Shown here piece by piece: positions 2,846 through 53,785 of a DNA stretch of 64,000 bases; position 1 is the stretch's first letter; each line of letters begins with the position of its first letter. A program made the translations under genes and the position numbers. This stretch comes from Cephalotus follicularis (Eukaryota; Streptophyta; Magnoliopsida; Oxalidales; Cephalotaceae). Location of the stretch: NCBI GenBank assembly GCA_001972305.1, contig BDDD01000170.1, forward strand, positions 140,044 to 204,043, read 5' to 3'. A model generated the notes under the pieces. The model saw only the letters and a program-made list of their open reading frames with translations. It was not told where the DNA came from and ran no database searches.

Positions 2846-2890
2846 GAAACTCTTCTCGCATTGATCGGACCACTCTAACTTTACATTCTT

Positions 2891-3541: not shown

Positions 3542-3649
3542 AAACAGTACCGGTGCACCCTATGGTGACACACACAGTCGGATAAATCCTTTATCCAAAA
3601 GCTCTTGTAATTGATCCTTCAACTCTTTCAGCTCAGCTGGTGCCATGCG

Positions 3650-17033: not shown

Positions 17034-17936
17034 ATGTCGGTTGGCTCAGCACTATCACGCGTACTTCAAACTAATAAGCTCACGGGTCCTAATTTCTTGG
17101 ACTTGTAACGCAACCAACGCTTGCACTCACGAGCATGAATCTTGCTCATGTCATGACGGAGAGCCCCCCTAGACTGGGAGCCAATCCGTCAGAAGAGTAA
17201 AAGGCCAAGAGGGCCAAATGGTTAGATGAGGACGAGCAAGCTCATCGCTTAGAGATTTCGGGTATGGTCCCAGAATTGTAAAGACAACACGAGACACTTG
17301 ATACCGTATACTTCTCCATCTTCAGGAGTTGTATGGATCCCGTCGAGGACCGAGAGGTTTAACTTGTCCCGTCAGCTCTTCTGCATGAACATGGCCGAGG
17401 GATCTTTAGTCCACACACATGGATTGAAGATGATAGATCTTGTTGAGCAGCTAGCTCAGTTAGATCTTACCATGGATAATGACTTCTACATTGACCTAGT
17501 TTTATCATCTATCCCTAGGTCATACTCCAAGTTCATCACAAATGTTCACATGAACAAGGTGGATACTAATCTGCCTGAACTTGTGGAAATTCTTCGTACG
17601 GCCGAAGTAGACATGGGACACAGTAAGTCCAAGTCTGATGTGATGCTTCTCCAATCTAGTTCTTCCAGGATAGCTTCGAGAGGGAGCGGATCGAGAGGAT
17701 CCAAGTCCAAGGGCAAGGCGTCCATGAAACCTAAAGGGAAGAAGAAGAACAAAGAGAGAAGACAAGCTGCGCCGACGGGGCCAGTGGTTGGGGATCAATT
17801 CTGGACACCATATGTCAACTATAGGATGATGACTGCTGCTTCTATTGTGGGAAGCATGGGCATTGGAGATCACAGTGCAGTGAGTTCCAAAAGTCCAAAT
17901 CTAGAGGTGCCTCAGGGCAGGTACTTTCATGATTGA
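17034..17936 (+). pseudogene. Copia D gag remnant
   Basis: Starts with an ATG at 17034 in a typical copia gag opening (ALSRVLQTNKLTGPNFLDL). The later part (17298-17936) has the UBN2-type gag content: LVEQLAQLDLTMDNDFYIDL, LSSIPRSYSKFITNV, LPELVEILRTAEVDM, then a lysine/serine-rich basic tail. The matching region of element E (36417-36911) has the same order and ends in a zinc knuckle. Fossil; broken. Confidence 0.82.
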
Positions 17937-18370: not shown

Positions 18371-19462
18371 GAGATAAGCGATGCAAACCCTTCATACATA
18401 TGGCATTGTAGATTAGGTCATCCTAATCGGGGTAGACTAACACGCTTGGTTAAGGATGGTCTTTTCGACATCCAGGACATGGAGTCCTTTCCAGAGTGCG
18501 AGCCATGTCTTATTGGCAAGATGACCAAATCACCATTCTTCGGGGTAGGAAAAAGGGCTTTGGACATACTGGTTCTTGTCCACACCGACGTCTGCGGACC
18601 TATGTCAATCAATGCTATTGGAGGTTTTCCCTACTTCATCACCTTTGCCGATGACTTATCACCGTACGGTTATATGTTTCTGATGAAACACAAGCCTAAT
18701 GCGTTTGAGAGGTTCAAAGAATTCAGACTAGAAGTAGAAAAGTAAATGGGCAAACCCATCAAGATCCTCCAGTCGGATTGAGGTGGAGAATAACTATCTG
18801 CTGAATTCCTAGGTTATCTTAGGGATAACGGAATTCTCTCTCAATGGACGCCTCCTGGAACACCGCAGCATAAGGGTGTGTCCGAACGTAGGAATCAAAC
18901 TTTGATGAACATGGTCCGGTCCATGATGTCTTTCGTGGATCTTCCTATATCATTATGGGGTTATGCACTGCATGCGGCAGCGCACATCCTAAACTGGATT
19001 CCTTCAAAAACTGTCCCCTCCACTCTGTAAGAGGTGTACAAAGGGAGGAAACCCAGTCTAAACCATTTGAGGGTTTGGGACTTTCCAGCTTATGTGAGAA
19101 GGGCGGAACCTTCTAAGATTGAGGCACGAGCGGATCGTTGTCGGTTTGTGGGGTATCCTAATGAGACAAGAGGATACTTATTTTACCATCCTAGCGATAA
19201 AAATATATTTGTTTCGGGATATGATACATTCCTAGAGAAGGAATACCTGCTTGTAGGGAGCAATGGGAGCACAGTGGAGCTGAGAGAGCTGTCACCTGAT
19301 GAAAGCCCACAGGATGAGGAGGAATTAGAGGTTCAACCCTCTATAGACACAGTTGGGGAAGGTTCCCAACCTGAGAGTGGATCTCAATTAGGTGCTCCTT
19401 TAACGAGGAGATCAGGCAGAGTTCTAGTCCCTCCTGAGAGATATGGCTTTCTCATTGACTGA
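18371..19462 (+). pseudogene. Copia D integrase remnant
   Basis: The pre-integrase zinc-binding segment is visible around 18400-18545 (IWHCRLGHPN, LVKDGLFDIQDM, CEPCLIGKMTKSPF). The core follows with HTDVCGPMSINAIGGFPYF and FADDLSPYGYMFLMKHK. The C-terminal linker has LNHLRVWDFPAYVRRAEP, CRFVGYPNETRGYLFYHP and RRSGRVLVPPERYGFLI. It ends at the satellite junction. Fossil; broken. Confidence 0.87.
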
Positions 19463-19624
19463 ATGAAGGCTTAAATTGACTTTCTAGACACTAAACATGA
19501 GTCATTTCACCTCTAGCTGGCCAAATCACTTATATGTGCCACGGTTTAAGTGTTTGACTAAACACAGACACATATTACCTTCCTAAGTGTAAAACATAAG
19601 GACTTTGGCTCCTGGAAGGCCAAA
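19463..19624. repeat. Satellite fragment left of the CACTA element
   Basis: About 160 bp of the same satellite that fills 40712-64000 (tgaatgaaggcttaaattg, actttctagacac, gcacatattaccttcctaag variants). It joins copia D at the left and breaks off in ggaaggccaaa at the CACTA end. The sequence resumes in phase at 27041. Confidence 0.92.
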
Positions 19625-19639
19625 CAAAACAAGAAAACA

Positions 19640-19910
19640 GGCCTCTTGAAATGGATAAAATCTGTTTCAAAAGGCCTGTTTTTCCTTTTCAAAATATCTT
19701 TTGAAACAGTTTTGAAACGGAAAAATAGAATTTCAAAAAAGTGGCATGGCAAAAGCCTTTTTAAACGGATATATCCATTTCAAAAGGCACCCTTTTGAAA
19801 CGGTTCGGGTCCATCCGTTTCAAATGGTACCCTTTTGAAACGGGTAATCTGCCCGTTTCAAAATGGGACCTTGTTAAACGGTTTTACCCTAACCGTTTCA
19901 AAAGGTTAAT
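19640..19910. repeat. CACTA left subterminal repeat array
   Basis: About a dozen copies, in both orientations, of the 13-base motif CCGTTTCAAAAGG and its complement, often back to back as hairpins (around 19762-19910). Subterminal arrays of this sort are the transposase-binding sites of CACTA elements. The spacing is irregular and the copies carry single-base changes. Confidence 0.85.
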
Positions 19911-20154
19911 ATTTTTTTAAAAAATTCAATATGCCATGGATTTCACAAGCGAACAAAGTTTGATAGGCCAACAAAGTCACTGTCTTGAAATATATTAAGC
20001 AGACTCATTAGCATATTATAATTAAGGGTTAAATACCATGGATTTGACAGGCCAACAAAGTTTGACAAGTTTATCTACCTCTCTGGTAATTGTATTGGTA
20101 AAAAATTCTTATATGCATTGAGTGTACCTAACTAGTCAAGAAACAGAAACTTAC

Positions 20155-20828
20155 AACACTATTATCCGTTGCAAATCCAGATAAAACAAACATGAGGTAG
20201 AATGTGATTATGCACTCGACCACAAAAAACTGGATATCTGACCCTGCAGGATGTGTTCCTGCAAACACATCTTGCTTCCCATCGAACAGTAATCGTAGGG
20301 TTCCAGCTACTAGCGTTGAACCAAGAATTTGAGACGATACATAAGCCAGTACCTACATGGTAGAAGGGAATAAAAAATAAATCAAATTCATATATGAACA
20401 CATCTATTTAAAGATGAGTGATTTATTAGACTTAGGTTTAGATATGTGAAAAACAAAAAATAATAATAATTGAAGTGTAAAGAATCTCTGGAGTAATACA
20501 CATTTTGTGAGAATGTGAACATATAAAATGTCTTTCAACAATAGTTGACTAATCAAAATGTGCCAAGACTGCCTTTGAATTGGTTCTCTAATTATAATGT
20601 AGCAAAAACATAAATCAATAATAATACAACTCATTACATGTCAAAACAATTTCTTTGTTTGGACACAACCACCTAAGAGTCGGTTTAAGTAGTTTTACCT
20701 GCTTCTAGGGAAACCTCTTGCAGGTGGCAAAAGCAATGGTGACTGCAGGGTTAAAAGGGGCATCGGACATGTGGCCATCAGAGTAAACCAAGACCATCAC
20801 GGCTAGTCCCCAATCTCGCTCGATGAAC
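20155..20828 (-). pseudogene. NIP-type aquaporin gene fragment (two exons with intron)
   Basis: NIPs (nodulin-26-like intrinsic proteins) are membrane channels for water and small neutral solutes. Two adjacent exons are seen on the minus strand. Exon at 20699-20828: WGLAVMVLVYSDGHM, then the first pore motif in FNPAVTIAFATCKRFP, with a TAG where the family has Trp in FPWKQ. Exon at 20155-20352, exactly 66 codons and open: VLAYVSSQILGSTLVAGTL, LLFDGKQDVFAGTHPAGSD and ECIITFYLMFVLSGFATDN. The exons are bounded by AG and GTAAAA/GTAAGT splice signals, and the join falls where NIP genes have an intron (KQ/V). The usual SGAHFNPA is changed to SDAPFNPA. The first exon, much of exon two's 5' side and the second NPA half are missing. 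It lies within the CACTA element, so it is best read as a captured, decayed fragment. Confidence 0.88.
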
Positions 20829-21226
20829 CTAATTTAAGCATGAGGGATTATAAGGTTTCTATTATATGTGCATATTTCTTAGAAGAATTATAGTAAAACC
20901 ATTCCATATGCCCCACAAAACTTTGAATACTTTAAAACAATGCGAAAATATAGTTGATACTGAGAATTTAAAATTTTGAAAAGTTAACCAAAAAAAAATC
21001 CAGTACATGCTACAAAGGAGTCATCTTTTTTGGGATGCACCAAGCTTGCTTTAATAGAAAGCTTAAACGTTAGAAGAACAATGTTTGGCATAAAAACTTG
21101 CAGACATAACAAATGCAAAATCAACAAACTATTTCAGTAACTTGTTCAGTTCAAGAATGTCAAGCAAAGAGATTTGGCTTATCGTGTATTTCTTGATAAG
21201 CAATTGTATCACATAGCGTATAATAC
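20829..21226. other. Spacer between the two captured gene fragments
   Basis: AT-rich sequence without a recognisable exon. It holds either the intron flanks of the aquaporin and kinase pieces or the junction where the two captures were joined; I cannot place the junction. Confidence 0.5.
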
Positions 21227-21970
21227 TTGTGCAATTGAAGCAGAACCAAGAGGATCCACATAAAACCTTTCAAATACATTGCTGACACTTTGACTGAATT
21301 CCCTCTCTAGCACAGCTAGAACAACATCAAATGGCGTTAGGGGAGCTCGATCACACAGTGTGACAAGCCTTTTTACCCATGCAATCGGGGCCAAATCAGG
21401 CTTTCCAATAATTTGGGCAACCTAATTAAATCCTTCCCACATATTAAATAAGAATAATAACCATCATCATCAACCGATTGCACCTTTATGCTAAATTCAA
21501 GGATAAAAAAATGACAGAACCATTGAATTACAGTGAAAAAAAGGTGGAAAGTAAACAAAAAACACGAGACGTTTCGTCAAACAACTCAAGTCCATTTTCT
21601 TAACAATGTGAAAGAGTGTAAAAATACTTGTGCATGCGTATCGGAATTTTGCTATATTTGACCAAATACAAGAACAGGCAAAATAAAAACAAGTAGTAAT
21701 AACATTATCAAGAAATAGACCAACAAAAAAACCCAGATGAATTGATAAATGAAGCTAAAGAAAAAAATAATAAAGGTTCAAATGAATTGAAGAGAGAGAG
21801 AAAGAGATAGATAGAGAGAAGGAAATGAGAGATGCATGTACCTTGAGGAAAAACCCCCCAAGGTCATAGCACATAGCGTATATCTTCTCTGCAGCAACCT
21901 CATGCTGTCTTTCCCACATTGCCTCCTACTTTTGCACGTCTTTCTCAAAACTGACTCTAACTTGAAACAC
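21227..21970 (-). pseudogene. ABC1/UbiB-like (ABC1K) kinase gene fragment (two exons with intron)
   Basis: ABC1K proteins are atypical kinases of plastids and mitochondria. Two exons are visible on the minus strand. The first (21842-21970, 43 codons) reads VFQVRVSFEKDVQK, a TAG, then MWERQHEVAAEKIYAMCYDL and GGFFLK, ending at a GTACAT donor. The second (21227-21421, 65 codons, open) reads VAQIIGKPDLAPIAWVKRLV, LCDRAPLTPFDVV and the family hallmark VDPLGSASIAQ, ending at GTATTA. FFLK/VAQ is a natural exon junction. The N-terminus upstream and the kinase core after IAQV are missing; beyond it the frame runs into intron-like sequence and a stop. It lies next to the aquaporin piece, on the same strand, inside the CACTA element. 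Confidence 0.9.
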
Positions 21971-22034
21971 CTAACCAATAATGTTTATATATAAAAAAAC
22001 AAATATAACCGATCAAAGAAAAATACACAGTATA

Positions 22035-22078
<44 letters not shown>

Positions 22079-22379
22079 CGGAGATGGTGAGAGGAGAGAT
22101 TGTGTTCGTTATATATTTGGAGAAGAGAAGATTCCAGTACTCCACCGACGTCAGTGTTGAGATGGAGAGAGAGAAGATTTGTCGTTGGTGTTGAGAGAGA
22201 AGATGTTGTTGAGAGTGAGAGAGAAGATTGGAGACTGGAGATGTTAGGGATGTTGGAAAGGCTCTATAGGCATTGATGCAATTTTGGCATATTAGGGTTA
22301 AAGGTTGTATTTTAAAATTTTTGTTTGTCAAAGTCTCCACAGATTGAGACTTCCTTAAACCCTAGGTCCAAGATTACTT
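21971..22379. repeat. (GA)n microsatellite and possible 5' region of the kinase fragment
   Basis: A pure (GA) run of about 35 bp lies at 22037-22072, with further GA/GAGA-rich sequence to about 22225 and a shorter one at 21790-21820. CT-rich tracts of this sort on the minus strand are common in plant 5' untranslated regions, so this may be the captured leader of the kinase gene. The long minus-strand frame across it (serine/leucine repeats) is a by-product of the microsatellite. Confidence 0.65.
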
Positions 22380-25300
22380 CAATCATGCCAAGGATCACTA
22401 ATGTAACTATCCATTGAACCATTATCACATTCCAAGCAAGATTAGAGTTTGGGTTATGCTAGGGATTCATTAACCCTTGCTTCGGGTTCCCCAATTTTAG
22501 GGTTAACATTTGCACATCTAAACCCTATCTCTATGGCCATAAAACCCAAACCTAAAGCACCCAAACCCTAAGGGTTTTCTAGGGTTCCAATCAAGGAACA
22601 CATGGGCTTGGATAGGGCACAAAAAACTCTAGCCAAATCCGAACCATAGATGCCCCAAAAAAGAAATATACAAAGAGAGAAAGTTAGATGCCATTACCCA
22701 AAGCTTTCACTCCTTCCTTCAAGTGCTCCCTCTGCACTTTGATCCAATCTTTGCTCCTTCACCAACGTTGATGTTCAAGACCTTAGCATGAACATATATG
22801 GAAGCTAAAGTGTTCAACCTATTCTAGAGGTCACAACATGTAATATGACTATGGAGGGTAAGAGAAGGTTATTTTGTTCTTCTTTTCTTCAAAGAGCACC
22901 AAGCTCTTGGTGTGACCAAGAATGGAGCACACACTCACGGCAAAGAAGGAGAAGAAAAAAGAAAGGGAGAGCTTGCTATTCTATTTGGTGAAACTCGTTT
23001 GAATGAATTGTGATGTGCAAGCCAAGATGTCTTAAGTGTTAAGTAAGGAAATCTTATTAAAATGATTTCCAACACATGTCTAATTAAGACATGACAAATG
23101 GCCAATTCATTTCTCCTTTTCTTGGCCTCCAAGCCATCCCCCACATGCCAAAGAATTTCCCAAATTCGGCCAAAGCAAGGGAGAAAAGGAAAAGTCAAAA
23201 TGCATTACACAAATGCATATTTTAATCACCTTAGAATAGTCAAATATTGTAGGCTACTAATATTGTGCATTTTGTGAGCATTTTGGCCGGCCATATATTG
23301 GGCAATTCCCATGCCCAATTTCAGCACAAAATGGGATATAAAATCCCATGCCTAATAAGCCTACAGGTATACAAACTCTCTCCATCAATAGATGCACAAA
23401 AGCATCTATCGGTTTGAACAAATAACCCTTTGCTCGGAACGAATCCATTTTGGTGATACATGAAATGATTTTAGCAAATGGAGTGTTCTCTAGCAAAGTA
23501 ACATCTCTTAGATGTTAGTCTCTCACTAAATGACTTGTGTTGCACACATGTCAACCTGTTCCACAAACAGGCAGGACCCGAAAGTCTGGATGAGTTCCGG
23601 TACGAAGATATGCTTCCCAGAAATCCCATGATTCTGGTACGTCTATCCCATAGCACCAAGGTTCCAGGCATACCTCACGTCAGAGGACTGCCAACTAACC
23701 TAGTGGTCTGGCTTCTATTTCCTAGGACTAGGGACATGCTCAGCAATGACCGTGATGGGCTAACTTCCAGCCGAGCAAACCTGTCGTGTACCTAGGTCAA
23801 ATCTAAGGTCAACAAAGCCCAACCAACACCTCCAACACATCATATATCCACACCTTACCTCTGGAGCTCGGTACTAAGGTCTAAACAACCTAAAAGAATA
23901 ACCATCAATAGGGATAAGGATAAACAACCACCATATCATATAAGATAAAGATTGTACACAAATATTCTCCAAGGTTCATACATAAGATTGTTTTATAGAG
24001 GATTACAACCCCAAAACAAACCGAAAAGTATGCCCAATATGCTTAAAGGGAACTAGCCGAGAAGGCGAGGAGAACAGCTGACCCCTCTGTATACCTCGCA
24101 ACAAGGTAATTATCCTGGTCAGATGTGGGGAAGACTTCACCTGCTTCCTCAATTGCAAAACAACAACCTGGGATGAGATTAGTCCAATGACTAGTGACAG
24201 GGGAAAGAAAGCATTCCTCAGCGCCAGGGAAGATCAAAGCCCTGAACAAAAACGACTATGCACCAGTTGGGCTCACAAATCCAGCGTGTCTCATCACCCA
24301 AGCGTACTAGAAAAGAATCAAAAGACTATCGGAGTATATACTAAGCAAAAGATGGTAAAATCAATAATGCTGAGAACAATAAGGAGAGAAAAATAAAGCA
24401 ACAGCCCAAACCAAATACCCGAGGACCCAAATAAAGGATCTAGACTCCAAGGATGAAATTGATCAGAGGAACACTGGTACTTGTCACCTTACCCAAACCA
24501 TCTGGGCCTTTCTCCTTGGCCATAATCCATACATCTGCTAGCGTCGGATTTCACGGCAGCAATATCTCAACAGTCCCTGACTGGAGAAGTAGATCACAGG
24601 CTTGCAGTGCACCACCTTCCATGTATCGATACAGAGAGCCACAAGTCTTGGCCTTCCACCAGAGGTGCCGACTGATCAGTGTCGAACCCAACCCTTGGGA
24701 GGCAAGCATATCACAAACATCAACTGAGGGGCTAGTGAATCACCACAAGGCACTACCCTCGTTGGCAATCGTGTATGAGAACTTCGACTGGAAGGTCAAC
24801 GAATCACCGCAAGGACCATCTCTCACCAGGAATCCCATAGAAACATACCATCAGTCACCACGGTCCTCATTATCCAGTATCCATACTCAACAACACATGG
24901 TATCAAGGAAAAGTTATGACATATATAAACAGGATAAACAGGGGGAAATATGACCCAGAACATCAAGCTCACCAGCTTGGAAATCAATATCAACTTAAAA
25001 GAATATGTCACACAAGGAAGAAACAACTCCCAGAACAAAGACACCATGGAAGGAATGGCATAAAAGCAGAGGACCCACATTCAGCTTAAAACTCTCAATT
25101 GTTTCAAGAATAAAGAAAGGAATGTCCCACTCACCACTTATCCGCTCCACCACGCCTCTTCCTATAGCTCAGGATCGATCCTCGGCTCCTCAGCTATAAG
25201 AACAAAGAACACAGACTTAGCACAGTCTAACAAAAACAGAGGAAAACATGCATGTAACCAATAATGCATGACCGCCTCCTCAGATAGTCACCCAGACCAT

Positions 25301-26640
25301 CCGCACTGCTCAACATTCCACCATAGAGCACCACGATCACCATCGCCATCTCTGCCTTCAACGTAAACGGGAGGTTGGCACGCACAATGCCAAACGAACA
25401 GAGGAAAGAAGACGAAGAAAGGAAGGGCTCACCTCTGCAAATGCAAGGATCTCGTTCTTCAAGCAACTCGTCTTCGCCAAAGGAAACTTTGGAAGGAAGA
25501 AGGAGAAAGAAGAAAGCACACAGAACTTACGCACCCTCTCAACTATTTACTTCTTGCACTAACAACTACTACAATGGTTCCTTTACCTGCTCAACTGCCT
25601 CAATGTGGGGGTTGGGCACTTGACAAGGCTGGACACTGCATTCCCTTACACACTCCTGCCATCAGCACTTGCACATGCCAACGCGCCAAAACAGAGGAAG
25701 CGACAGCAAAACCACTTAAGCCCAAACCAAGCCAAAGCCTAAACTCTTCTTAACCAAAAAGAAAAATTCTAAGGTCCAAAACATACAAAGTCCAATACCC
25801 AAGTTGGACCTGGGTCGTTACAACCCTCGGATACGTGTGTACCACGTCTATCATCAGTTAGCCAGACCATCTAGTACTTTATCATTGTCTTCGGCTTATG
25901 TGTTGCGTATCCCTCATCATGCTTAGCTCCGATCGTAGCCTAGGGTTTGGATTACTGTCAACCCTAGCTAAAGCCATGATAACTATAAATTCATGAACCT
26001 ATTAAGACTTTCGAGAGAGTCCCAATGAGACCTCGTTTCAATCTCTCTAAGTGCCTGGCCAGGACCTCAAGTCTTAATCATCATAGATATTATAGGGCTG
26101 ATCATCGTCAATACATGTGTGATGATTCTCTATTGCAAGCCTGCCCATACATCTCAATGCAGCTTCCACAAGACCCAGAGACAACCCTTTTGCCAGTACG
26201 TGGCTAGTGCTGGGGAAGGAGGAAACCAAAGACATGCAGTTACCATACAATGCATGCAGCTGCTCAAGTCTAAGGATACAACGCAAGTCTTAAAGTACCC
26301 ACTAGTCACCTTTGACTAAACACTATTTAAACAATAGGAACGCTATTGACAAATGTATTGACCATCGAAATAGGTATCCAATGTTGGGTCTATTCCATGT
26401 CATGCTCTCAGCACGTACCCACATCAGCTTTAGGGTAAACGCAAATGGCAATGAGATGATCCATCCTCCACTAAACCCGGGAGCAAGCATAATACGCCAA
26501 GTTTTTGCGGTTCATCAATTGCCAATATGAGAGTGAACCTATGACTTGGAACATTAGTCAGAAGGGAGTAAGGATCTCATTCTCGTAACCTCTCAGGCAT
26601 GAGATCCAACCCTTTTCTGATAGGGCACTATATGTGTATT
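22380..26640 (-). other. Unclassified LTR-like material inside the CACTA element
   Basis: About 4.2 kb with no convincing coding sequence. A purine/pyrimidine layout ending in gggtcgttaca at 25821 looks like the minus-strand start of an LTR (TGTAACGACCC). A 5-bp accct occurs before a TG at 22475 and after 25821, which could mark a 3.3 kb solo LTR, but a five-base match can be chance. The stretch 25830-26640 resembles the copia LTR of element E in a few places (for example cctggccagg). No domain was recognised in the scattered frames at 22935-25623. Confidence 0.4.
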
Positions 26641-26879
26641 CGGTTGACATGGTGATCAACCAATCCGATTCAACGGTTTGGGATAATACATATAATAAGA
26701 TGCCAATCTATAATAAAATATGCACGTTGAACATGAATGGAATTCAGAATGTACGATTAAAGTGTGTAACACATATCTCAAACATATGCTTACATCCACC
26801 TCATGGATTGCAAGGACACCCTAATCTAATAATGGATTGGAGACCGAACGAAATGGTTGATTTACGATTTGGGAATCTA

Positions 26880-27040
26880 AAATGTTATCCTTTCAAAACA
26901 GTTAGGAAATATCCGTTTCAAAAGGCCATGGCCTTTTGAAACGGAGAAGTCTTGCCGTTTCAAAAGGGAGGCCTTTTGAAATGAATATGTCCTAACCGTT
27001 TCAAAGAGCTGCGTTTCAACAAGTCATTTTTCTTGTAGTG
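26880..27040. repeat. CACTA right subterminal array and terminal inverted repeat
   Basis: About seven copies of CCGTTTCAAAAGG and its complement, including a back-to-back pair around ggccatggcc at 26917-26943, followed by the terminal repeat. On the minus strand the end reads CACTACAAGAAAAATGAC from 27040. This matches the general CACTA terminus (CACTACAAGAAA) well. Confidence 0.88.
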
Positions 27041-27474
27041 AAATGACCTTCATATATGCCAAGGGTGAAGTGTTTGAGCTAGGAAATGACCAAATTACCA
27101 TCCTAAGTGCCAACCATGAGACTCTTGGCTTGTGGGACGCCAAATGCCCTTTTAATGTGCCTTGGTAAAGAGTGTGACTTAAGAAATGCTTAAATTGTGT
27201 TCCTAAGTGCCAAAAATGAAGCCATGGCTTCTAGAAGGCTAAATGACCTTCTTATGTGCCAATGGTGAAGTGTTTGTTGGAATGAAGGCCTAAATTGACT
27301 TTCTAGACACCAAACATGAGTCCTTTGGCCTCTAGCAGGCCAAATCACTTTTATGTGACACGGTTTAAGTGTTTGACTTAACGCAGACACATATTACCTT
27401 TGGAAGTGCAAAACATAAGGACAATGGCTCCTGGAAGGCCAAATGACCATGATATGTGCCAAGGGTGAAGTCTT
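27041..27474. repeat. Satellite fragment right of the CACTA element
   Basis: Slightly more than one 400-bp tetramer of the satellite, starting in the phase left off at 19624 (aaatgaccttcatatatgcc). It ends at the truncated copia E. With 19463-19624 it formed one block of about 0.6 kb before the CACTA insertion. Confidence 0.92.
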
Positions 27475-28937
27475 TGTAGCTTACCGGATCATCATTCATG
27501 AAATTTACCTCTTGGGTAACTTCAATGAGAAAACTACCATAGTATCTCTCAGGTTCCCTGGGTAATCGTATTGTTCTACGCAGAGGTTGTGTATCTGCGG
27601 TAGCCGGCATTTCAAGAACATCGATTCGAACAGGATTGGATAGGCCCTCAACTTATGGGTCTTTAGATCGTTCATCAATTCTATCATACTCCCACTACTG
27701 TCTTCCAATAGGAAGTCCTTCTCAAGAAAAGTAGCATGCCTTGCTACAAACACTTTGTTGTCATGTGGATAATAAAAATAATATCCTCGTGTTTCTTTAG
27801 GATATCCCAAAAGTTTACATTTAATGGACCTAGATTCTAATTTATCTACTGCTGCTTGCTTGACATATGCAGAGTAGCCCCATATTCTTAGGTAACTAAG
27901 ATTGGGTTTCTTCCCATTCCATATCTCACATGGGGTCTTGGGAGTAGATTTCGTTGGAGTCCTGTTCAATAAGAGAACAACAGTCTCTAAAGCATATCCC
28001 CAGAAAGACAGTGGAAGTCCAGCATCACTCATCATGCTACGCACCATGTTAAACATGGTATGATTTCTCCTTTCGGACACACCATTATGCTGTGGTGTTC
28101 CAAGAGGGGTCCACTAAGAGATAATCCCATTATCTCTAAGATAAGTTAAAAACTCGGTGGAGAGATACTCACCACCTCGATCTGATCGAAGAGTTTTCAG
28201 ACTTTTACCAGTCTTTTCTCTACTTCATGTCTGAATTCTTTGAACTTTTCAAAGGCTTCATATTTGTGCCGCATTAGGTACAAATAACCAAAACGGGAAT
28301 GATCATCTGTAAAGGTTATGAAGTAGGAATATCTACCTCGGGCATCAATTGTCATTGATCCACATACATCAGTATATACTAGACGTAGCAATTATGGGGT
28401 CCTTTTCGTTTTCCCTGTGAAGGGAGATTTGGTCATTTTACCTTTAGGACAGGGTTCACATGTTGGAAGCGGTTGATACGTTGAAAAATCAAAGTATCCA
28501 TCCGAGATCAACCTGCGAACTCTTTCCTCACTTATATGACCAACACTGCAATGCCACATGTAGGATTGATTAACTTCATCTCTCTTTCTTTTATTGTCTT
28601 TTTGCATATTGAAAACAGTCTCAACTTTACTCAATATATATAATCCATCATGAAGGAAACATTTTGCATAAATTATATTATTAAATAACGTAGAACGACA
28701 GTTGTCTTTTAAAAATAATATGAAAACCTTCATCATCTAGTATTGGAGTAAAAACAATATTTCGCAAAATGTGAGGCGAATAAACACAATGTTTGAGTTC
28801 TAAACTCTGGCCCGAAGGCAAAAAAATATAAACTGATCCTATAGCTATGGCTTCAATGACGGATCCATCCGCAAGCTCTAGATCTCCTTCACGCTTCTCA
28901 AGGTTTCTTCTGTCCGTAAGGGCTGTAAATTAGAATA
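27475..28937 (-). pseudogene. Copia E protease end and integrase remnant
   Basis: Pre-integrase region at 28392-28736 (YMWHCSVGHISEERVRRL, CEPCPKGKMTKSPF). Integrase core at 28197-28391 (YTDVCGSMTIDARGRYSYF, FTDDHSRFGYLYLMRHK). Further core and linker at 27505-28080 (RRNHTMFNMVRSMMSDAGLP, LNRTPTKSTPKTPCEIWNGK, CKLLGYPKETRGYYFYYP). The last visible part is TIRLPREPERYYGSFLI. The family is close to element D. Fossil; broken. Confidence 0.88.
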
Positions 28938-28942
28938 TATGT

Positions 28943-31900
28943 CATGGGCCGAACCGCGAGGGTAAACCCCCAGGACTCGACGCGTGAGATACCAATCCGT
29001 TCAGTCCATTCATATTATATATGTCATACTCCATAAGTGCTACATATATAAAGCTTTAAATCAAAGTCATATTACATCAACGGAATACTCAATTCAAACA
29101 AAAACTAACTCTTAAAATCTCCCAAAATTTTGGCATGCAGTATTCGTTTATCGGACTTAACCCCTTGTAAAGAAAAACACATTTTTATATGTCCACACTC
29201 CCAAAGGAGGAATCAAGAGTTTATCACAATGTATGGACCTTTCCATGTCCTTTACATCAGCACCCATATAATCAAGCGCTGCCACAAGCCGGCAGGTCAA
29301 ATACAGAAATAAAACATATCTCTATTTCATCTTTAGAATTGTCTGTTATACAACAACTATAAATACATCCATATTCTAATATCTGCCGTATTACGATATT
29401 ACATTTACACAAAGTAGGTCGGAGGAGATGTAGATCCTTACCCTACGATTTAACCTGACTGGTCACTGCTGCGCGTCACTTGGACCAGAACCTGATCCAT
29501 TACATTACAATACAAGGCAATGGGTTAGCAACCCGAAGGTTTTGTAGGATATACATAATCAAGGAACATATAAAAGTGCAGCAGATATGTGTACAATATA
29601 TGAGAGAGATGTATGCATGACAATCAATATTAACCATGCTATGAAAACTAGAAGTTAGAAAATGCCATTAATACAAAGTAGTCACCATTCAATAACCATA
29701 TCCATATGATCCCAACACAATTCCATTATCATTCGGCCTCCATATAATTCCAAAGTCCTTCCAAAGCATATACCAATTATTCTCGGCATTTCTTGTCAAG
29801 GTAACAGACTAGGCACTCATGGCGTCCTAGTCAGAGGTCCTCATTCTACTGGCAGACTAGACTAGCATTCGTAAGTAGAACAAGGAAGAGAAGATGGAAC
29901 TTCTCTAACACTAGTTTCTCTAGCTACAGTCACCATCAATATCCATATACCATCGCAATCCAGACCATTATGATCCATAAAGATACGATTCGTATCCATA
30001 TCGTATCTGTTCCATAACCATTCCATATTCGTTCCATAACCATTCCGTATTCGTATGAACCATAATCGTAAAATCTATAGTCGTACGATGCCTAATCATA
30101 CAAACCAAAGCCATTCAATCCGTAACCGGTTCGTCCGTATAGCGGAGGGCTATACTATATGCCATGCGATGTAACAGTATAACAGTATGTGATGTAACAT
30201 AATAGCGTAACAATATGTCGTGTAATGCAAGGGTATAATAGTATATATGTGCATGACATGCTATATGCATGAATGTCAAGTAGGGATAGCTTTCGTATAC
30301 CAACTATCCCTATGCAGTGGTATACTCAGCTAGTCCTAGTATCACATCAAAGGACATACGTCTGTATACACTACATAACAATCCATAACAATTCATATTC
30401 AGGGGTTAACTACGTACATATACTGTCCCATACCAGTATATATACGCATTTAACCCACATCCCGTTCCCTAGATTCATGTAGGTTCTAGGCTGATAAGGA
30501 TTCATTCGTCCAACCATACAAATCCGTAACCCTAACCATATCCATCCATAGCTATAACCGCTGCCATCCATAAGCATAACCGTTTACGGTCCATATCCAT
30601 TTATAATTTGTATCCGTTAACGGTCCTGTTAATGGTCCATGACCGTTTACAATCCACATCCATTTACAGTACATAACCGTTTACAGTCCATAACCATTTA
30701 CGATCCATATCCATTTACTGTCCATAACCATTTAATCCGTAACCGTACTATCTCATTTCAATGAGATAGTTCACTACGAACTGTATAGGGGCTGTCTTCG
30801 GCCTCCTCTGTCAGTACCAGTTCTCTTTTAAAGATATGGATCTTATAGTCTCAGTTCCAATAGAGGTCCAGACGTGTGTCCACCGTTAATGGCAAATAAC
30901 AATTCATTCAATTCCGTTAGGACTCTAGTCATGTGTCCACCGCTAATGGCCAATAACAATTCATTCAATTCCTTTAGGAGTCCAGTCGTGTGTCCACCGC
31001 TAATGGAAAATATTTACATTAATGGTCCAGTCGCGTGTCCCCATTCAGGGTACAGTCATGTGTCCCTCTCAATTCATTCAATCAGTCATTTGTCTATTAT
31101 ACCCGTACATAATTCATTAAGCCATACAATCAGCAATCATGCATGACTGTAACAATTCACTTAGCGCATAATCATCAATGAATAGCATAACAATCCATAC
31201 CATCCATTCAAAATGCATGAATGCAAGTAAAACAGTAAAACTGCACTCTAGTGATCAACCATTCGTATACTACCATCCCATATCGGCATGTACGAATGGG
31301 ATCAAGTCACTAGTCATCTGGGCACATTCAATCAGAGCATATGTATACCTACCTGTTACCAATTGAGCTTGCGAGTTGGGAGGGCTTGCAGCAGAATCGA
31401 TGAACTACCTCATCCTCTAAGCTTCGCTCGCGATCACGAGCACAACTCCATCTTTTGTCAACAGAGTTCTCTTTGTCTCCTTGTATCACTGCAATAACCA
31501 TCGCACATTCTATTATGACTTACACACATGTAGCAAATACACCTTGTCGTCACCGGAGTTCCGACCAAATTCCGGCTGACACATCGAAACTCCAGCCACG
31601 CCATCAATAGGTTCTAAATTAGCCGGTCTACACACTTGTAACCGTGACTCACCGTGAATCGCACAGTCATAGCTGGTAGTTAGTCAACTCACTGAGTTAA
31701 CTCGACGGACATTCAAAAGCTCCGGCCACCCCCCAAAAACACCACACCATCTTCAGAGTAACACATCCCCGCCTTAAACTCTTCGAGACTCGCCAAGGAA
31801 CCGACGGTCACAGCGGGCAGCGAGTGAAGCTCGCTGGTTTAACTCAGTCAACCATTCCCAGCCATTTTCGGCCGAACAATGCCTCAACAGCCACCAAAAC

Positions 31901-32276
31901 AGGCGTAGTTGGTCCTCGGGATGATAACCCACTCCTCCCGTGACCCTAATGGCGGCGAGAAACGGCCGACAGTGGCAAGGCGTCGGGCGACAGAGAAAAG
32001 AAAAGACAGAGAAGAAGAGGGTTAGGGGGTTACCGACAGCTAGAGAAGGACCTGGGCACGCCATCTCCCGATTTAGCGCCTTCGTCCGGCGTCGTCTTCT
32101 CCCGGCGCCATCTCTCTCCCTCTCTCTGGTTCTCGGTCCCGTCTCTCTTTCTTTGCCGTAAGTTAAATGCGTCCGGCGCATAACACACTTGTGTTATGCA
32201 CCCGTTAGCCCCCTTTCCTTTTTTTATGTGTATATATTTAATATTATATACATGTATATATATCTGGGGCATTACA
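28943..32276 (-). repeat. 3' LTR of element F
   Basis: 3334 bp, minus-strand start TGTAATGCCCCAG at 32276 directly after the polypurine tract. It contains a cluster of ~17-20 bp repeats built on ccgttta / ccattta with ccata (30490-30740) and ~65-bp repeats around tccagtcgtgtgtccaccg (30860-31070). Minus-strand frames in 31774-32272 rich in Arg/Glu show no domain and are not called as genes. Confidence 0.88.
30490..31070. repeat. Minisatellites in the 3' LTR of element F
   Basis: Two neighbouring tandem arrays. The first (about 30490-30740) has short units such as ccataaccgtttacagt alternating with ccatatccattta. The second (about 30860-31070) has ~65-bp units containing gtccaccgctaatgg and caattcattcaattcc. 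The matching second array in the other LTR (34740-35105) has a different copy number. Confidence 0.85.
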
Positions 32277-32836: not shown

Positions 32837-35800
32837 CATGCCGCGAACCGTGAGGGTAAACCCCCACGACTCGACGCATGAGATACCAATCCGTTCAGTC
32901 CATTCATATTATATATGTCATACTCCATAAGTGCTATATATATAAAGCTTTAAATCAAAGTCATATTACATCAGCGGAATACTCAATTCAAATAAAAGCT
33001 AACTCTTAAAATCTCCCGAAATTTTGGCATGAAGTATTCGTTTATCGGACTTAACCCCCTGTAAACAAAAACACATTTTTATATCTCCACCCTCCCGAGG
33101 GAGGAATCAACAGTTTATCACAATGTATGGACCTTTCCATGTCCTTTACATCAGCACCCATATAATCAAGCACTGCCACAAGCCGACAGGTCAAATACAG
33201 AAATAAAACATATCTCGATTTCATCTTTAGAATTGTCCCTTATACAATAACTATAAATACATCCATATTCCAATATCTGTCCTTTTACGATATCACATTT
33301 ACAAAGTAGGTCAGAGGAGATGTAGATCCTTACCTACGATTTAACCTGGCTGGTCACTGTTGCGCGTCACCTGGACCTGAACCTGACCCATTACATTACA
33401 ATACAATACAATGGGTTAGCAACCCGGAGGTTGTGCAGGATATACATATGCAAGGAACATATAAAAGTGCAGCAGATATGTGTACAATATATGAGAGAGA
33501 TGTATGCATGACAATCAATATTAACCATGCCATGAAAACTATCATTTAGAAACATGCCATTTATACATAGTAGTCACCATTCAATAACCATATCCATATG
33601 ATCCCAGCATAATTCCATTATCATTCGGTGTCCATATCATTCTGAAGTCCTTCAAAAGCATATACCAGTTCTTCTCAGCCTTTCTTGCCGAGGTAACAGA
33701 CTAGGCACTCATGACGTCCTAGTCAAAGGTCCTCATTCTACTGGCAGACTAGAGTAGCATTCGCAAGTAGAACAGGGAAGAGAAGATGGAACTTCTCTAA
33801 CGCTGGTCTCTCTAGTTACAGTCACCATCAATATCCATATACCATCGCAATCCGGACCATTACGATCCATAAAGATACGATTCGTATCCATATCATCTTC
33901 GTTCCATAACCATTCCGTATTCGTTCCATAACAATTTCATATTCGTATGAACCATAATCGTACAATCTATAGTCGTACGATGCCTAATCGTACAAACCAT
34001 AGCCATTCAATCCATAACCAGTTCGCCCGTGTAGCAGAGGGCTATACTATATGCCATGCGATGTAACAGTATAACAGCATGTGATGTAACATAACAGCGT
34101 AACTATATGTCGTGTAATGCAATGGTATAACAGTATATATGTGCATGACATGCTATATGTATGAATGTCAAGTAGGGACAGCTTTCGTATACCAACTATC
34201 CCTAAGCAGTGGTATACTCAGCTAGTCCTAGTATCACATCAAATGACATACGCCTGCATACACTACATAACAATCCATAACCATCCATATTCAGGGGTTA
34301 ACTACGTACATATGCTATCCCATACCAGTATATATACGCATTTAACCCACATCCCGTTCCCTAGATTCATGTAGGTTCTAGGCTAATAAGGATTTATTCG
34401 TCCAACCATACAAATCCGTAACCCTAACCATACCCATCCATAGCTATAACCGCTGCCATCCATAAGCATAACCGTTTACGGTCCATATCCGTTTATAATC
34501 TGTATCCGTTAACGGTCCATGACCGTTTACAATCCACATCCATTTACGGTACATAACCGTTTACAGTCCATAACCATTTACGATCCATATCCATTTATTG
34601 TCCATAACCATTTAATCCGTAACCGTACCATCTCATTTCAATGTGATAGTTCACTACGAACTATATAGGGGCTGTCTTCGGCCTCCTCTGTCAGTACCAG
34701 TTCTCTTTTAAAGATATGGATCTTATAGTCCCAGTTCCAATAGAGGTCCAGACGTGTGTCCACCGTTAATGGCCAACAACAATTCATTCAATTCCTTTAG
34801 GAGTCCAGTCGTGTGTCCACCACTAATGGCCAGTAACAATTCATTCAATTCCTTTAGGGGTCCAGTCGTGTGTCCTCAATTACATTAATGGTCCAGTCGC
34901 GTGTCCCCACTTAGGGTCCAGTCACGTGTCCCTCATTTACATTAATGGCCCAGTCGCGTGTCCCCACTTAGGGTCCAGTCACGTGTCCCTCATTTACATT
35001 AATGGTCCAGTCGCGTGTCCGAACTTAGGGTCCATTCACGTGTCCCTCATTTACATTAATGGTCCAGTCGCGTGTCCCCAGTTACGGTCAAGTCACGTGT
35101 CCCTCTCAATTCATTCAATCAGTCATTTGTCTATTATACCCGTACATAATTCATTCAGCCATACAATCAGCAATCATGCATAACCGTAACCATTCACTTA
35201 GCACACAATCATAATCGAATAGCATAACAATCCATACCATCCATTGAAAATGCATGAATGCAAGTAAAACAGTAAAACCGCACTGTAGTGATCAACCATT
35301 CGTATACTACCATCCCATACCGGCGTATACAAATGGGATCAAGTCACTAGTCATCTGGGCACGTTCCATCGGAGCATATGTATACCTACATGTTACCAAT
35401 TCAGCTTGCGAGTGGGGAGGGCTTGCAGCAGAATCGACGAACTGCCTGCTCCTCTAAGCTTCACTCGCGATCTTGAGCGCAGCTCCATCTTTTGTCAACA
35501 GAGTTCTGTTTGTCTCCTTGTATCACTGCAATAACCATCACACATTCCGTTATGACTTACACACATGTAGAAAATACACCTTGTCATCACCGGAGTTCCG
35601 ACCAAATTCCGGCAACACATCGAAACTCCAACCACTCCATAAACAGGCTCTAAATTAGCCGGTCTACACACTGGTAATCGTGACTCACCTTGAATCGCAC
35701 AGTCACTGTCGGCAGTGACTTAACTCACTGAGTTGACTCACCGGACATTCAACAGCTCCGACCACCACCCAAAAACAGCACACCATCTTCAGATTAACAC

Positions 35801-36314
35801 ATCCCCACCTTAAACTCGCCGAGACTGGCCAAGGAACCGACGGTCATAGCAGGCAGCGAGTAAAGCTCGCTGGTTTAACTCAGTCAACAATTCCCGGCCA
35901 TTTTTGGCCGAACAACGCCTCAACAGCCACCAAAACAGGCGTAGCTGGTCCTCAGGATGAAAACCCACTCCTCCCGCGACCCTAACGGCGGCAGGAAACG
36001 GCCAACAGTGGCAAGGCGTCGGTGACAGGGAAAAGAAAACAAAGAGAAAAAGAGGGTTAGGGGGTTACCGATAGCTGGAGAAGGACCTGCGCACGCCATC
36101 TCCCGGTCCGACGCCTTCGTCCGGCGTCGTCTTCTCCCGGCATCATCTCTCTCCTGCTCTCTAGTTCTCTCTCCCGTCTCTCTCTCTTTGGCACAAGTTA
36201 AATGCACCCGGCGCATAACAAACTATTGTTATGCGCCCGTTGGCCCCATTTCCTTTTTTTATATGTATATATTTACCATTATATACATGTATATATATCT
36301 GGGGCATTAAAACA
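32837..36314 (-). repeat. 5' LTR of element F
   Basis: 3478 bp, colinear with the 3' LTR and roughly 6 percent diverged in the first ~270 bp compared by eye. It is longer by about 144 bp, mainly because a ~60-bp repeat (cattaatggtccagtcgcgt and catttacatt variants) is expanded to about four copies at 34880-35105. Confidence 0.88.
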
Positions 36315-38958: not shown

Positions 38959-40711
38959 TGGTTGGAACCGTATGGCGATTTAGGAAATAAAATATCTATA
39001 TGCATAAAACCCTAAAACATATATTGTGTGATCAACTCATGAATATCAAGCCATATGGTTCATTTCCAGGATCTTTTGAGCATACATATTAGATATAAAT
39101 CAATGGGGAGGAGCAGGCAGAATTACTTACAATAATGGAGCGGCTTCTTCCTTCTTCCAATGAGTCTTCTTGCTTCCAAAAGCACAGCTACTTATTGAAC
39201 GTTTGAAATGGTTCTAGCTTCCAAGTATGGAAAGTCTCCAAGGTATCCACACCAAGCTTCAATCTCCAACACTGTTGCTTTGCAAGCAATCAACACTTGA
39301 TTGTATGAGAGAGAGAAAGATAGAGGCGGCTAGGGTTTTGCAAAATAAAGCAAAAGTCTTAATTGTGAATAGGGAGATGTGTTTATATTTTAGCTGCTAG
39401 ACTAATCCCACTTAAACACAATCTCCTATTCAGCCAACCCTTTATCTTAAAGGAAATTTTTTCTTTTAAAATTTTCCTTTCTTCAATATAATGAATCTCA
39501 TTAATTATATTTTATATATTTAATCTCATTAAATATAATTAGGAAATAACATCCCAATTATTTTTCTCTCATCACGTATTGGAAATATCTGCCCGTATTG
39601 TGTGTGACCCTATGGGTTCACTATTGCGCTGGCCATAGGATTAATATTGTGATGCTCACAATTATCCAATTAAATATTTATTATCACATAAAAATATTCT
39701 CTTCGACATTTCGAATTAAAACTCTTTTAATTCTTTTCTTCCAAAATTAATTTGTCAATTTAAACTCAGGCATCCTACTGGTCGACATCGACATTAGCAA
39801 TGCATAACGACCCCCAGGCAATATGAATAATTTGTGAACAAATGTTTACAGGTACATGCACGTATAGTCCCTCCATTGACAATGCTCAAATTTAATCTAG
39901 GGTACGGATTATGTCAGACCCCAATTATTTAATCTTTAGCCTCGTCACTATCTTTCATTAGCCTAAATAATATTAGAGGTGCCCCTCTAATATTCAACAA
40001 ATGATATCACACTCTTGATATCGTGGCTAGCCTGGCCAGGCGTTTAATTGCTAACAAAAATCATCCTGAGCATAATCTTCTTTTACTAGAAGCAATGGAT
40101 TCATTGTTGCCAATTCACATGCCTCTATACATAAGCATACTATCTCCAACTAATGCGTGTATACACTTCATAGAATATGTATTTAAGCATCATCAAAACA
40201 CAGCCTCTATGCACAAGACATCCAGTGACGACTCATGTCTAAGGACCACATGCGCTGCTGTAAAACTAGAATTATGTCTGACATGTAAGTAAAACTCCAT
40301 CCAAATATTCTATCAACAATAACCTTCAGTGAGCTCATTAAATGAGCACCCACGTAGTTGTCATAGCATCATCCATTCGAGTGAGTGTGATATCAGTCAC
40401 CCTCTGCTTACCGATCCGACAGTACGTGCTGGTCTATTTGGATTGATCATGCCCCGACTGTCAATCCTATGACCAGGAAGATTCGAAATAAAGTATAGCG
40501 AGATTCCAACTCTCACATAATGATCTCATCATGAACTTGGTTCTCAAACTTTATTCCAGGACATTCATTTACAATTAATAAAGCATGTATTAATGAAACG
40601 AACTCATAGCCATTGATAAAACGTAAATATCTTTATTGAATTTGTAAATAGTTTATACAAGATAATGTAAATACAAGCTCAACACTGGCCCGCAGCATTT
40701 CATCTCGAACA
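38959..40711 (-). repeat. 5' LTR of copia element E (1.75 kb)
   Basis: Minus-strand start TGTTCGAGATG at 40711, directly beside satellite, and end CCAACCA at 38959, two bases from the primer site. A possible TATA box (minus-strand AAATATAAACAC) is around 39380-39392. AT-rich around 39440-39560. Small frame at 40023-40292 has no domain and is treated as chance. Confidence 0.82.
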
Positions 40712-43700
40712 CTTCTTATGTGCCTTGATAAAGAGTTTGACTTAAGAAATTCTTAAATTACCTTCCTAAGCTCCAAAAATAAGGCCATGGCTTCCAAAAG
40801 GCTAAATGAACTTCTTGTGTGCCAAGGGTGAAGTGTTTGATCGAATGAAGGCTTAAATTTTCTTTCTAGACACCAAAGATATGTCCTATGGTCTCGAGCA
40901 GGCCAAATCACTTATATGTGTCATGGTTTAAAGGTTTGACTTAACGAAGGCACATATTTCCTAACTAAGTGAAAAACATAAGGACATTGGCTCCTAGAAG
41001 GCCAAATGACTTTTATATGTGTCAAGGGTGAAGAGTTTGCGTTAAGGAATGACCAAATTGGTATCCTAAGTGCTAAACAATAGGCTCTTCGCCTCTGGGA
41101 AGCCAAATGCCCTTCTTATGTGCCTTTGTAAGGAGTTCGACTTAAGAAATGATTAAATTTCCTTTCAAAGTGCAAAAAATGAGGTCATGGCATCCCGAAG
41201 GCTAAATGACAATATTATGTGCCAATGGTGAAGTGTTTGACTGAATGAAGGCTTAAATTGACTTTCTAGACACCAAACATGAGTCCTTTTGGCCTCTAGT
41301 AGTCAAAATCACTTATATGTTCCACTGTTGAAGTGTTTGACTTAACGCAGGCACATATTACCTTCCTAAGTGCAAAACATAAGCACATTGGCTCCTGGAA
41401 GGCCGAATGACCTTCATATGTGCCAACAGTGAAGTGTTTGAGTTAAGGAATGGTCAAATTACCAACCTAAGTACCAAACATGAGGCTCTTGGCTTCCGGG
41501 AGGTCAAATTCCCTTCTTATGTGCCTTGGTAAAGAGTTTGACTTAATCAATGCTTAAATTGCCTTGCTAAGTGCCAAAAATGAGGACATGGCTTCTAGAA
41601 GGCTAAATAACCTTCTTATGTGCCAATGGTGAACTGTTTGACCGAATGAAAGCTTAAATTGACTTTCTAGAAACCAAACATGAGTCCTTTGGCCTCTGGT
41701 TAGTGAAATCACTTATATGTGCCATGGTTTAAGTGTTTGACTTAACGAAGGCACATATTACCTTCCTAAGTGAAAAATATAAGGACCTTGGCTCCAAGAA
41801 GGCCAAATGACCTTCATATGTGCCAACGGTGAAGTGTTTCAGTTAAGGAATGGTCAAACTGCCATCCCAAGTACCAAACATGAGGCTCTTGGCCTCCGGG
41901 AGGCCAAATGTCCTTCTTATGTGCCTTGGTAAAGAGTTTCACTAAATAAATACTTAAATTACCTTCCTAAGTGCCAAAAATGAGGCCATGGTTTCCAGAA
42001 GCCTGAATGACCTTCTTATGTGCCAAGGGTGAAGTGTTCGACTGAATGAAGGGTTAAATTGACTTTCTAGACAACAAAGATGAGTCCTTTGGTCTCTAGT
42101 AGGCCAAATCACTTATATGGGCCACGGTTTAAGTGTTTGACTTCATGAAGACTCATATTTCCTACCTAAGTGCAAAACATAAGGACCTTGCTTCTTGGAA
42201 GGCCAAGTGACTTTCATATGTGCCAAGGGTGAAGTGTTTGAGCTAAGGAATAGTCCAACTGCCAACCTAAGTGCCAAACATGAACGTCTTGGATTTTGGG
42301 AGGGCAAATGCCTTTCTTATGTGCCCTGGGAAAAAGTTCGACTTAAGAAATTTTAAATTGCCTTCCTAAGTGTCAAAAATGAGTACATGACATCTAGAAA
42401 GCCAAATGAACTTCTTATGTTCCAAGGGTGAAGTGTGTGACTGAATGAAGGCTTAAATTGACTTTCTAGACCACAAAGATGAGTTCTTCGGTCTCTAGTA
42501 GGCCAAATCACTTATATGTGCCACGGTTTAAGTGTTTGACTTAACGAAGGCACATATTTCCTTCCTATGTGCAAAACATAAGGGCCTTGGTTCTTGGAAG
42601 GCCAAGTGACTTTCATATGTGCCAAGGGTCAAGTGTTTGAGCTAAGGAACTGTCAAATTCCTAACCTAAGTGCCAAACATGAAACTCTTGGCTTTCGGGA
42701 GGGCAAATGCCTTTCTTATGTTCTTTGGTAAAGAGTTTGACTTAAGAAATTCTTAAATTGCCTTCCTAAGTGTCAAAAATGAGGCCATGGCTTCTAGAAA
42801 GCTAAATGACCTTCTTGTGTGCCAAGGGTGAAGTGTTTGACTGAATGAAGGCTTAAATTGATTGAATGAAGGTTGAAGTGTTTGACGTAACGATGGGACC
42901 TATTTCATTTCTAAGAGCAAAATATTAGGCCCTTGGCTCCTGGAAGGCCAAATGACTTTCATATGTGTGAAGGGTAAAGTATTTGAGTTAAGGAATGGTC
43001 AAATTACCATCATAACTGTAAAACATAAGGACCTTGGCTCCTTGAAATCCAAATGACTTTTATATGGGTCAAGGGTGAAGTGTTTGAGTTTGGGAATGGT
43101 CAAATTTACGTCATAAGTGCTAAACATGAGGCTCTTGGCTTCTGGGAGGCCAAATGGCGTTCTTTTGTGCCTTTGTAAGGAGTTTGTCTTAAGAAATGCT
43201 TAAATTGCCTTCCTAAGTGCCATAAACAAGGTCATGGCTTCCAGAAGGCTAAATGACATTCTTATGTGCCAATGGTGAAGTGTTTGACAGAATGAAGGCT
43301 TAAATTGACTTTCTAGACACCAAACATGAGTCCTTCGACCTCTAGTCAGCGAAATCACTTATATGTGCCACGATTTAAGTGTTTGACTTAACGAAGGCAC
43401 ATATTTCCTTTCTAAGTGCAAAACATAAGGACATTGGTTATTGTAAGGCCAAGTGATTTTCATATGTGCCAAGGGTGAAGTGTTTGGGCTAAGGAATAGT
43501 CAAATTCTCAACCTAAGTGCCAAACATTAAGCTCTTGGCCTCCGGGAGGGCAAATGCCTTTTTTATGTTCCTTGGTAAGGAGTTTGACTTACGAAATGCT
43601 TAAATTACCTTCCTAAGTGCATAAAATGAGGACATGGCTTCTAGAAGGCTAAATAAGCCTCTTATGCGCCAAGGGTGAACTGTTTAATTGAATGAAGGCT

Positions 43701-52903: not shown

Positions 52904-53146
52904 AAAGTGTATCAGAGAAAGGAAGCTCTTTGTTCTATCAAGTGCTTGGAGATAAGCAATCATAGCTTAGATTTGGAAGTGAGCTCATTGTTAAACCTCT
53001 CATAATCACATCCTTCAATTAAAAAAAAAATTAGAACCATGTCATATAGTTCAGGTTCATATTATCCATCATCCTACCGTACAAGCTCTTCTTGGGAAGA
53101 TACCGCTACAATCATAAAAGAATAGTGGAAAGCACTAAGCAATCAA

Positions 53147-53557: not shown

Positions 53558-53785
53558 AACTCGATGAATTTCTTGTCCACACAACCACAACTGGTTGAGT
53601 TTGTTATTCCAGAAAAGTTCAATCAATCACATGAACATGACTTTTGTTAAAGGTGTTGCTGACTCAATTCAAGACTTCAAAGTTGTCTTGCATGTTAAGC
53701 ACAAAGTTGGTGTTCCCAAGCAATGCATGTTTACTACTTCAAATTTACAAAACTCGAGGTTGAGTTTTCTCCAACATAGGGAGTT

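What the first reader, a model, noticed from the sequence alone, without database searches (positions are those of the whole stretch)
19625..27040. A CACTA transposon that carries pieces of two unrelated host genes
Seen: a CACTA right end, a degenerate left end, subterminal arrays and a 3-bp target duplication, with an aquaporin fragment and an ABC1-like kinase fragment side by side on the same strand inside. Known: plant CACTA and Pack-type elements can capture and carry gene pieces. Inference: this element captured both pieces, introns included, at DNA level. The pair (NIP plus ABC1K) may define a distinct, possibly undescribed gene-carrying family.
Basis: partly seen in the sequence, partly recalled or inferred. 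Interest (0 to 1): 0.75.

Follow-up and report, generated by a model that had tools for sequence, protein, structure and literature searches.

The report
CACTA transposon carrying fused gene fragments
A 7.4-kb plant jumping gene of the CACTA type sits in a satellite repeat array and carries broken pieces of a kinase-like gene and an aquaporin gene fused end to end, a new example of a well-documented kind of gene capture.

Summary
The element is 19625-27040 (7,416 bp) with an AAA duplication, and it interrupts a 100-bp satellite array. Joining the flanks with one AAA removed restores the array: 36 of 42 spanning alignments have no gap near the junction, against 0 to 6 of 42 at the eight other offsets tried. 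The subterminal motif CCGTTTCAAAAGG (at most one mismatch) occurs 11 times in 64 kb, all in the two ends.

Both gene pieces lie on the minus strand with GT-AG introns. They are not merely side by side: the ABC1-kinase piece runs into the first codons of a further exon and there abuts aquaporin exon 2, within about 10 bp of 20812, out of frame. Each piece also has a premature stop. No transposase domain was found in 98 ORFs of 40 aa or more, so it is a non-autonomous, Pack-CACTA-like element.

Soybean Tgm-Express1 (five gene fragments, with introns) and maize Pack-CACTAs holding coding DNA from several loci are close precedents. This is a new member of a known kind. Copy number, parent genes and the suggested 'family' could not be tested, because no genome is held for this window.

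The parts
19622..19624 (.). target-site duplication AAA, left copy
19625..27040 (.). CACTA element, 7,416 bp
   Evidence: empty-site join restores the satellite
19625..19637 (+). left terminal repeat CAAAACAAGAAAA (2 mismatches to CACTACAAGAAAA)
19642..19905 (.). left subterminal array of CCGTTTCAAAAGG in both orientations
20155..20352 (-). aquaporin (NIP-like) exon 3, followed on the minus strand by a GTAAGT donor-like site
   Evidence: PF00230 31.6 bits; coordinates
20353..20698 (-). aquaporin intron, 346 bp, GT-AG
20699..20812 (-). aquaporin exon 2, cut at its 5' side; in-frame TAG at codon 36
   Evidence: PF00230 29.9 bits, homology starts at the W codon
20811..20828 (-). start of ABC1K exon C (VHRARL), abutting aquaporin exon 2
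   Evidence: PF03109 28.6 to 44.3 bits when added; the only AG followed by V-H-x-A among 7,850 in the window
20829..21226 (-). ABC1K intron B-C, 398 bp, GT-AG
21227..21421 (-). ABC1K exon B
   Evidence: PF03109
21422..21841 (-). ABC1K intron A-B, 420 bp, GT-AG
21842..21970 (-). ABC1K exon A, in-frame TAG at codon 15; upstream limit uncertain
   Evidence: splice sites and frame; only weak ABC1 alignment, E 0.068 at best; no Pfam hit on its own
21971..26884 (.). unassigned interior, including a (GA)n run at 22038-22073
26889..27023 (.). right subterminal array, with a perfect 34-bp palindrome at 26912-26945
27028..27040 (-). right terminal repeat CACTACAAGAAAA, exact
27041..27043 (.). target-site duplication AAA, right copy

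Best explanation
This is a non-autonomous, Pack-CACTA-like transposon. Shown: it inserted as one 7,416-bp unit into a satellite array, with a 3-bp duplication, and it carries a genomic ABC1K piece (at least exons A, B and the start of C, with two introns) joined exon to exon to a genomic NIP-type aquaporin piece (part of exon 2, an intron, exon 3). Inferred: the two pieces were copied from separate genes into an ancestor of the element during repair of a gap or break inside it, with a template switch at a short shared stretch (TTG/TGG region) making the fusion; a transposase made elsewhere, acting on the CACTA ends and the subterminal array, then moved the whole unit here. It now looks inert: left TIR changed, no transposase, stops in both pieces, fusion out of frame.
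For: Empty site and TSD; TIR and subterminal motif counts; gene pieces; intron borders and fusion point; no transposase domain in 98 ORFs of 40 aa or more or in 61 ORFs of 27-39 aa from 21970-26885. A single capture of two neighbouring whole genes is hard to fit, because each gene is broken inside an exon exactly where the other begins.
Against: The template-switch step is not demonstrated; without parent genes the length of shared sequence at the junction cannot be measured, and an internal deletion after two captures, or an end-to-end join, would look the same. Exon B could instead be read through (VLYAM then stop), and that reading scores 35.2 bits against PF03109, so the net gain of exon C over read-through is about 9 bits, not 15.7. 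Adding GTS past exon C gives another 2 bits, so the junction is placed only to within about 10 bp. Helitron capture was not tested.
Confidence: 0.8

Rival explanations
1. The pieces came in by the tandem-insertion route: two neighbouring related CACTA copies flanking host DNA were re-mobilised as one element, and later deletions produced the fusion.
For: This is the model put forward for Pack-CACTA in PMC8903248 section 9 and PMC13317346 section 4.
Against: It needs at least one internal deletion to join two gene interiors. No remnant internal CACTA end was seen: no copy of the subterminal motif with 2 or fewer mismatches lies between 19925 and 26870.
Confidence: 0.3
2. Another gene-capturing element (Pack-MULE, hAT or Helitron) had captured the pieces and was itself nested inside the CACTA element.
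For: About 4.9 kb of the interior is unassigned.
Against: A scan of 19906-26884 for 18-bp terminal repeats (5 or fewer mismatches) with 8-10 bp duplications found 0 candidates. Helitron ends were not tested.
Confidence: 0.1
3. It is an ordinary chromosomal gene region that merely happens to lie between CACTA-like motifs.
For: The left TIR is degenerate.
Against: The flanks join into an uninterrupted satellite at exactly one offset, 3 bp; the subterminal motif is confined to the ends.
Confidence: 0.02
4. A chimeric, functional host gene was formed by the capture.
For: Canonical splice sites are kept, and Tgm-Express1 shows that such exons can be spliced into transcripts (PMC1947982, abstract and passages).
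Against: One in-frame stop in each piece; the ABC1K and NIP frames differ at the junction. No expression data.
Confidence: 0.03

Closest known systems
Tgm-Express1 (soybean CACTA, 5.7 kb; PMC1947982 abstract and passages, PMC2613891 passages)
   Same: CACTA ends and subterminal repeats, no room for a full transposase, several unrelated host gene fragments with exons and introns; in its CDC2 and FPK fragments introns are flanked by captured exons.
   Different: Five fragments of other genes, inserted in a gene intron and expressed; here two identified fragments, inserted in satellite DNA, expression unknown, different subterminal motif from those I saw described.
Pack-CACTA / Pack-TYPE elements of maize, rice and Arabidopsis (PMC8903248 sections 8-10)
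   Same: Non-autonomous CACTA carrying coding DNA; [quoted passage not shown]
   Different: Their pipeline reports 5-nt duplications for CACTA; here it is 3. Copy number could not be compared.
CACTA elements of Chenopodium with captured gene fragments and satellite DNA (PMC8978399 passages)
   Same: Captured host gene fragments in a CACTA element.
   Different: Those cited elements keep transposase-coding sequence; there the satellite is inside the element, here the element is inside the satellite.

Membership tests
CACTA (En/Spm) superfamily | Terminal inverted repeats beginning CACTA/CACTG | tested here: met
   Right end exact; left end CAAAA, 2 mismatches over 13 bp, read as decay
CACTA (En/Spm) superfamily | 3-bp target-site duplication (PMC4423477 Table 1; PMC2613891) | tested here: met
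   AAA/AAA; only the 3-bp join restores the satellite
CACTA (En/Spm) superfamily | Subterminal arrays of short repeats in both orientations | tested here: met
   11 of 11 one-mismatch copies in the ends
CACTA (En/Spm) superfamily | tnp2-type transposase (autonomous members only) | tested here: not met
   No such Pfam hit in 98 ORFs of 40 aa or more at E 0.05; this rules out an autonomous element, not membership of the superfamily
Pack-CACTA / Pack-TYPE | Non-autonomous element containing host coding DNA | tested here: met
   MIP and ABC1 pieces inside the element
Pack-CACTA / Pack-TYPE | Similarity of the captured DNA to identified parent genes | not testable with these tools
   No genome held
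Pack-CACTA / Pack-TYPE | Mobilised copies sharing the captured DNA | not testable with these tools
   No genome held; no second copy in the window
Pack-MULE | MULE terminal repeats with 9-bp duplication around the gene pieces | tested here: not met
   0 candidates at the thresholds
Helitron | TC...CTRR ends with a 3' hairpin, AT target | not tested
   no call made

The most novel reading that the evidence does not exclude
The ABC1K-NIP exon-to-exon fusion was made in one template-switching event inside a CACTA element and then spread as a multicopy Pack-CACTA family with this junction as its signature. That would make the family a dated record of how CACTA elements stitch unlinked genes together.
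Probability: 0.2. Interest if true: 0.45.

Novelty: new member of a known kind. Interest (0 to 1): 0.25.

Why it matters
How CACTA elements acquire unlinked gene pieces is still argued (PMC13317346 section 4 says an undiscovered mechanism may remain). This element offers a clean case: exact borders, a perfect empty site next door in the satellite, and a junction between two gene interiors placed to about 10 bp. With the host genome, the parent genes and sister copies would show at once whether the fusion carries microhomology and whether it was mobilised.

Tried and rejected
Nested LTR element inside the interior: scanning for TG...CA with 5-bp duplications gave 14 scattered pairs and 2 pairs for an outer element. 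For 23557-25820 (flanked by CAACC) the local scan gave 16 five-base matches where about 14 would be expected by chance (121 x 121 / 1024, my arithmetic), and the termini are not TG...CA, so I do not claim it. Nested TIR element: 0 candidates; one lone inverted 18-mer pair, 20039/24283. Further Pfam hits among the 98 ORFs (putAbiC 0.0025, Dehydrin 0.0037, DUF7676 0.014, SapB_1 0.022, MDH 0.028, FAM27 0.032, WHD 0.048) fit the number expected by chance from 98 searches and are not used. PDB search with the ABC1K exon B ORF alone found nothing at E 1. Two scans of viral contigs for the satellite unit and the subterminal palindrome, in case plant DNA had strayed in: 0 hits each. Rfam: 0 matches. 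Literature on this pair: 'CACTA' + 'aquaporin' + 'captured' gave 16 papers, 10 listed, none of which reads from title and abstract start as a CACTA carrying an aquaporin; 'CACTA' + 'ABC1K' + 'transposon' gave 0. Only open-licence papers are searched, so this is not proof of absence.

Full report
Borders. The finding's coordinates are exact. The element starts at 19625 (CAAAACAAGAAAA...) and ends at 27040 (...TTTTCTTGTAGTG), flanked by AAA on both sides. The DNA on either side belongs to a satellite with a 100-bp unit and 200/400-bp higher-order periods that fills much of 40.7-64 kb. I joined 170 bp of left flank to 440 bp of right flank and compared the join with the satellite elsewhere in the window. 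With one AAA removed, the best match runs 603 bp at 87% identity with one gap, which is not at the junction. As a control I skipped 0 to 8 bases of the right flank. At 3 bases, 6 of 42 junction-spanning alignments had a gap within 12 columns of the join; at 4 bases 36 of 42 did; at the other seven offsets 42 of 42 did. The 42 alignments are overlapping satellite copies, not independent events. The result fixes the ends and the duplication without any appeal to the terminal repeats.

CACTA features. CACTACAAGAAAA occurs exactly once in the window, at the right end; with up to 2 mismatches it occurs at six places, of which the left end is one. So the left terminal repeat on its own would be weak. 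The subterminal motif CCGTTTCAAAAGG, in both orientations, has 6 exact and 11 one-mismatch copies in 64 kb, all within 19625-19925 and 26870-27040; with 2 mismatches 17 of 19, with 3 mismatches 29 of 41. I picked the motif from the ends. The right array holds a perfect 34-bp palindrome, 26912-26945. Published CACTA elements have 3-bp duplications and family-specific subterminal motifs (PMC2613891 and PMC4423477, passages); one pipeline reports 5-nt duplications instead (PMC8903248 section 8).

No transposase. Of 98 stop-free ORFs of 40 aa or more in the element, 2 match MIP and 1 ABC1; seven other families appear at E 0.0025-0.048, as expected by chance from 98 scans; none is a transposase. 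Of 61 ORFs of 27-39 aa in 21970-26885, none matches at E 0.01. The element is non-autonomous.

Aquaporin piece (minus strand). Exon 2 from the W codon at 20812 to 20699, a 346-bp GT-AG intron, exon 3 20352-20155, then a GTAAGT site. Spliced, with X at the stop, it scores 75.8 bits against PF00230, and its best solved relative is Aquaporin NIP2-1, E 1.3e-16, aligned over the first NPA box. Resemblance to NIP subgroup I is recalled, not tested. Codon 36 of exon 2 is TAG. Homology to the profile begins exactly at the W codon, profile position 50 of 222, both with and without upstream residues.

ABC1K piece (minus strand). Exon B 21421-21227 matches PF03109. Exon A, 21970-21842, is placed by splice sites, frame and a weak alignment to ABC1 proteins (best E 0.068); it has no Pfam hit on its own and its upstream limit is a guess. 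It has an in-frame TAG at codon 15. Introns A-B (420 bp) and B-C (398 bp) are GT-AG and phase 0.

The junction. The stretch between them is an ABC1K intron, and its AG is followed by GTT CAT CGA GCG AGA TTG, VHRARL, which continues the conserved ABC1 sequence ...SASIAQ. Adding these six residues lifts PF03109 from 28.6 to 44.3 bits. Against that, simply reading exon B on into VLYAM and a stop already gives 35.2 bits, so the fair gain is about 9 bits. Independent of the profile, among 7,850 AG sites on both strands of the window just one is followed by V-H-x-A, and it is this one. Solved ABC1 proteins show QVH(R/L/K)A at the same place. Directly after VHRARL comes aquaporin exon 2: the last ABC1K codon TTG overlaps the aquaporin W codon TGG. 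Extending the ABC1K reading by three codons adds 2 bits, so I place the junction within about 10 bp of 20812. The frames differ, so the fusion is not a coding chimera. Both genes are broken inside an exon at the same point, which speaks for template switching, end joining or deletion after capture, and against one capture of two whole neighbouring genes.

Mechanism. Shown: DNA-level pieces with introns, direct fusion, entry into the satellite as one unit. Inferred: copying from two loci during gap repair with a template switch, then transposition in trans. Template switching guided by short shared stretches (median 2 bp) is reported for animal Pack-TIRs (PMC8277862, passages). The rival in print for Pack-CACTA is fusion of neighbouring insertions (PMC8903248 section 9, PMC13317346 section 4). 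I cannot decide between them without the parents.

Novelty. [quoted passage not shown] This element is a new member of that kind. What is particular is the pair of genes, the precise exon-to-exon junction and the unusually clean empty site. About 4.9 kb of the interior (21971-26884) remains unassigned.

Noticed in passing
40710-45241, 49005-51672, 55004-64000; also 19461-19624 and 27041-27476: Large satellite of a 100-bp unit with 200- and 400-bp higher-order periods, the target of this and other insertions.
   Followed up: partly
51673-55009: LTR-type element: 1.2-kb direct repeats 93% alike (51673-52907 and 53786-55014), starting TGATGC and ending GCATCA, flanked by AGAAG on both sides and inserted in the satellite.
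   Followed up: partly
28950-32274 and 32844-36309: Two direct copies of about 3.3 kb, 90-93% alike in two blocks each, with tandem repeats inside and about 570 bp between them; long LTRs or a tandem duplication.
   Followed up: no
17253-17936 (+) and 27505-28113 (-): Copia-type retrotransposon ORFs (Pfam Retrotran_gag_2 and SH3_retrovirus) close to the two sides of the short satellite remnant that holds the element, in opposite orientations.
   Followed up: no
23557-25820: Stretch of differing composition inside the element (24001-26000: GC 0.456, AT skew 0.265), flanked by CAACC; possibly a nested LTR, but not above chance.
   Followed up: partly
2321-5062 (-): Ty3-type retrotransposon ORFs: gag, protease, reverse transcriptase, integrase zinc-binding domain in neighbouring frames.
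   Followed up: no
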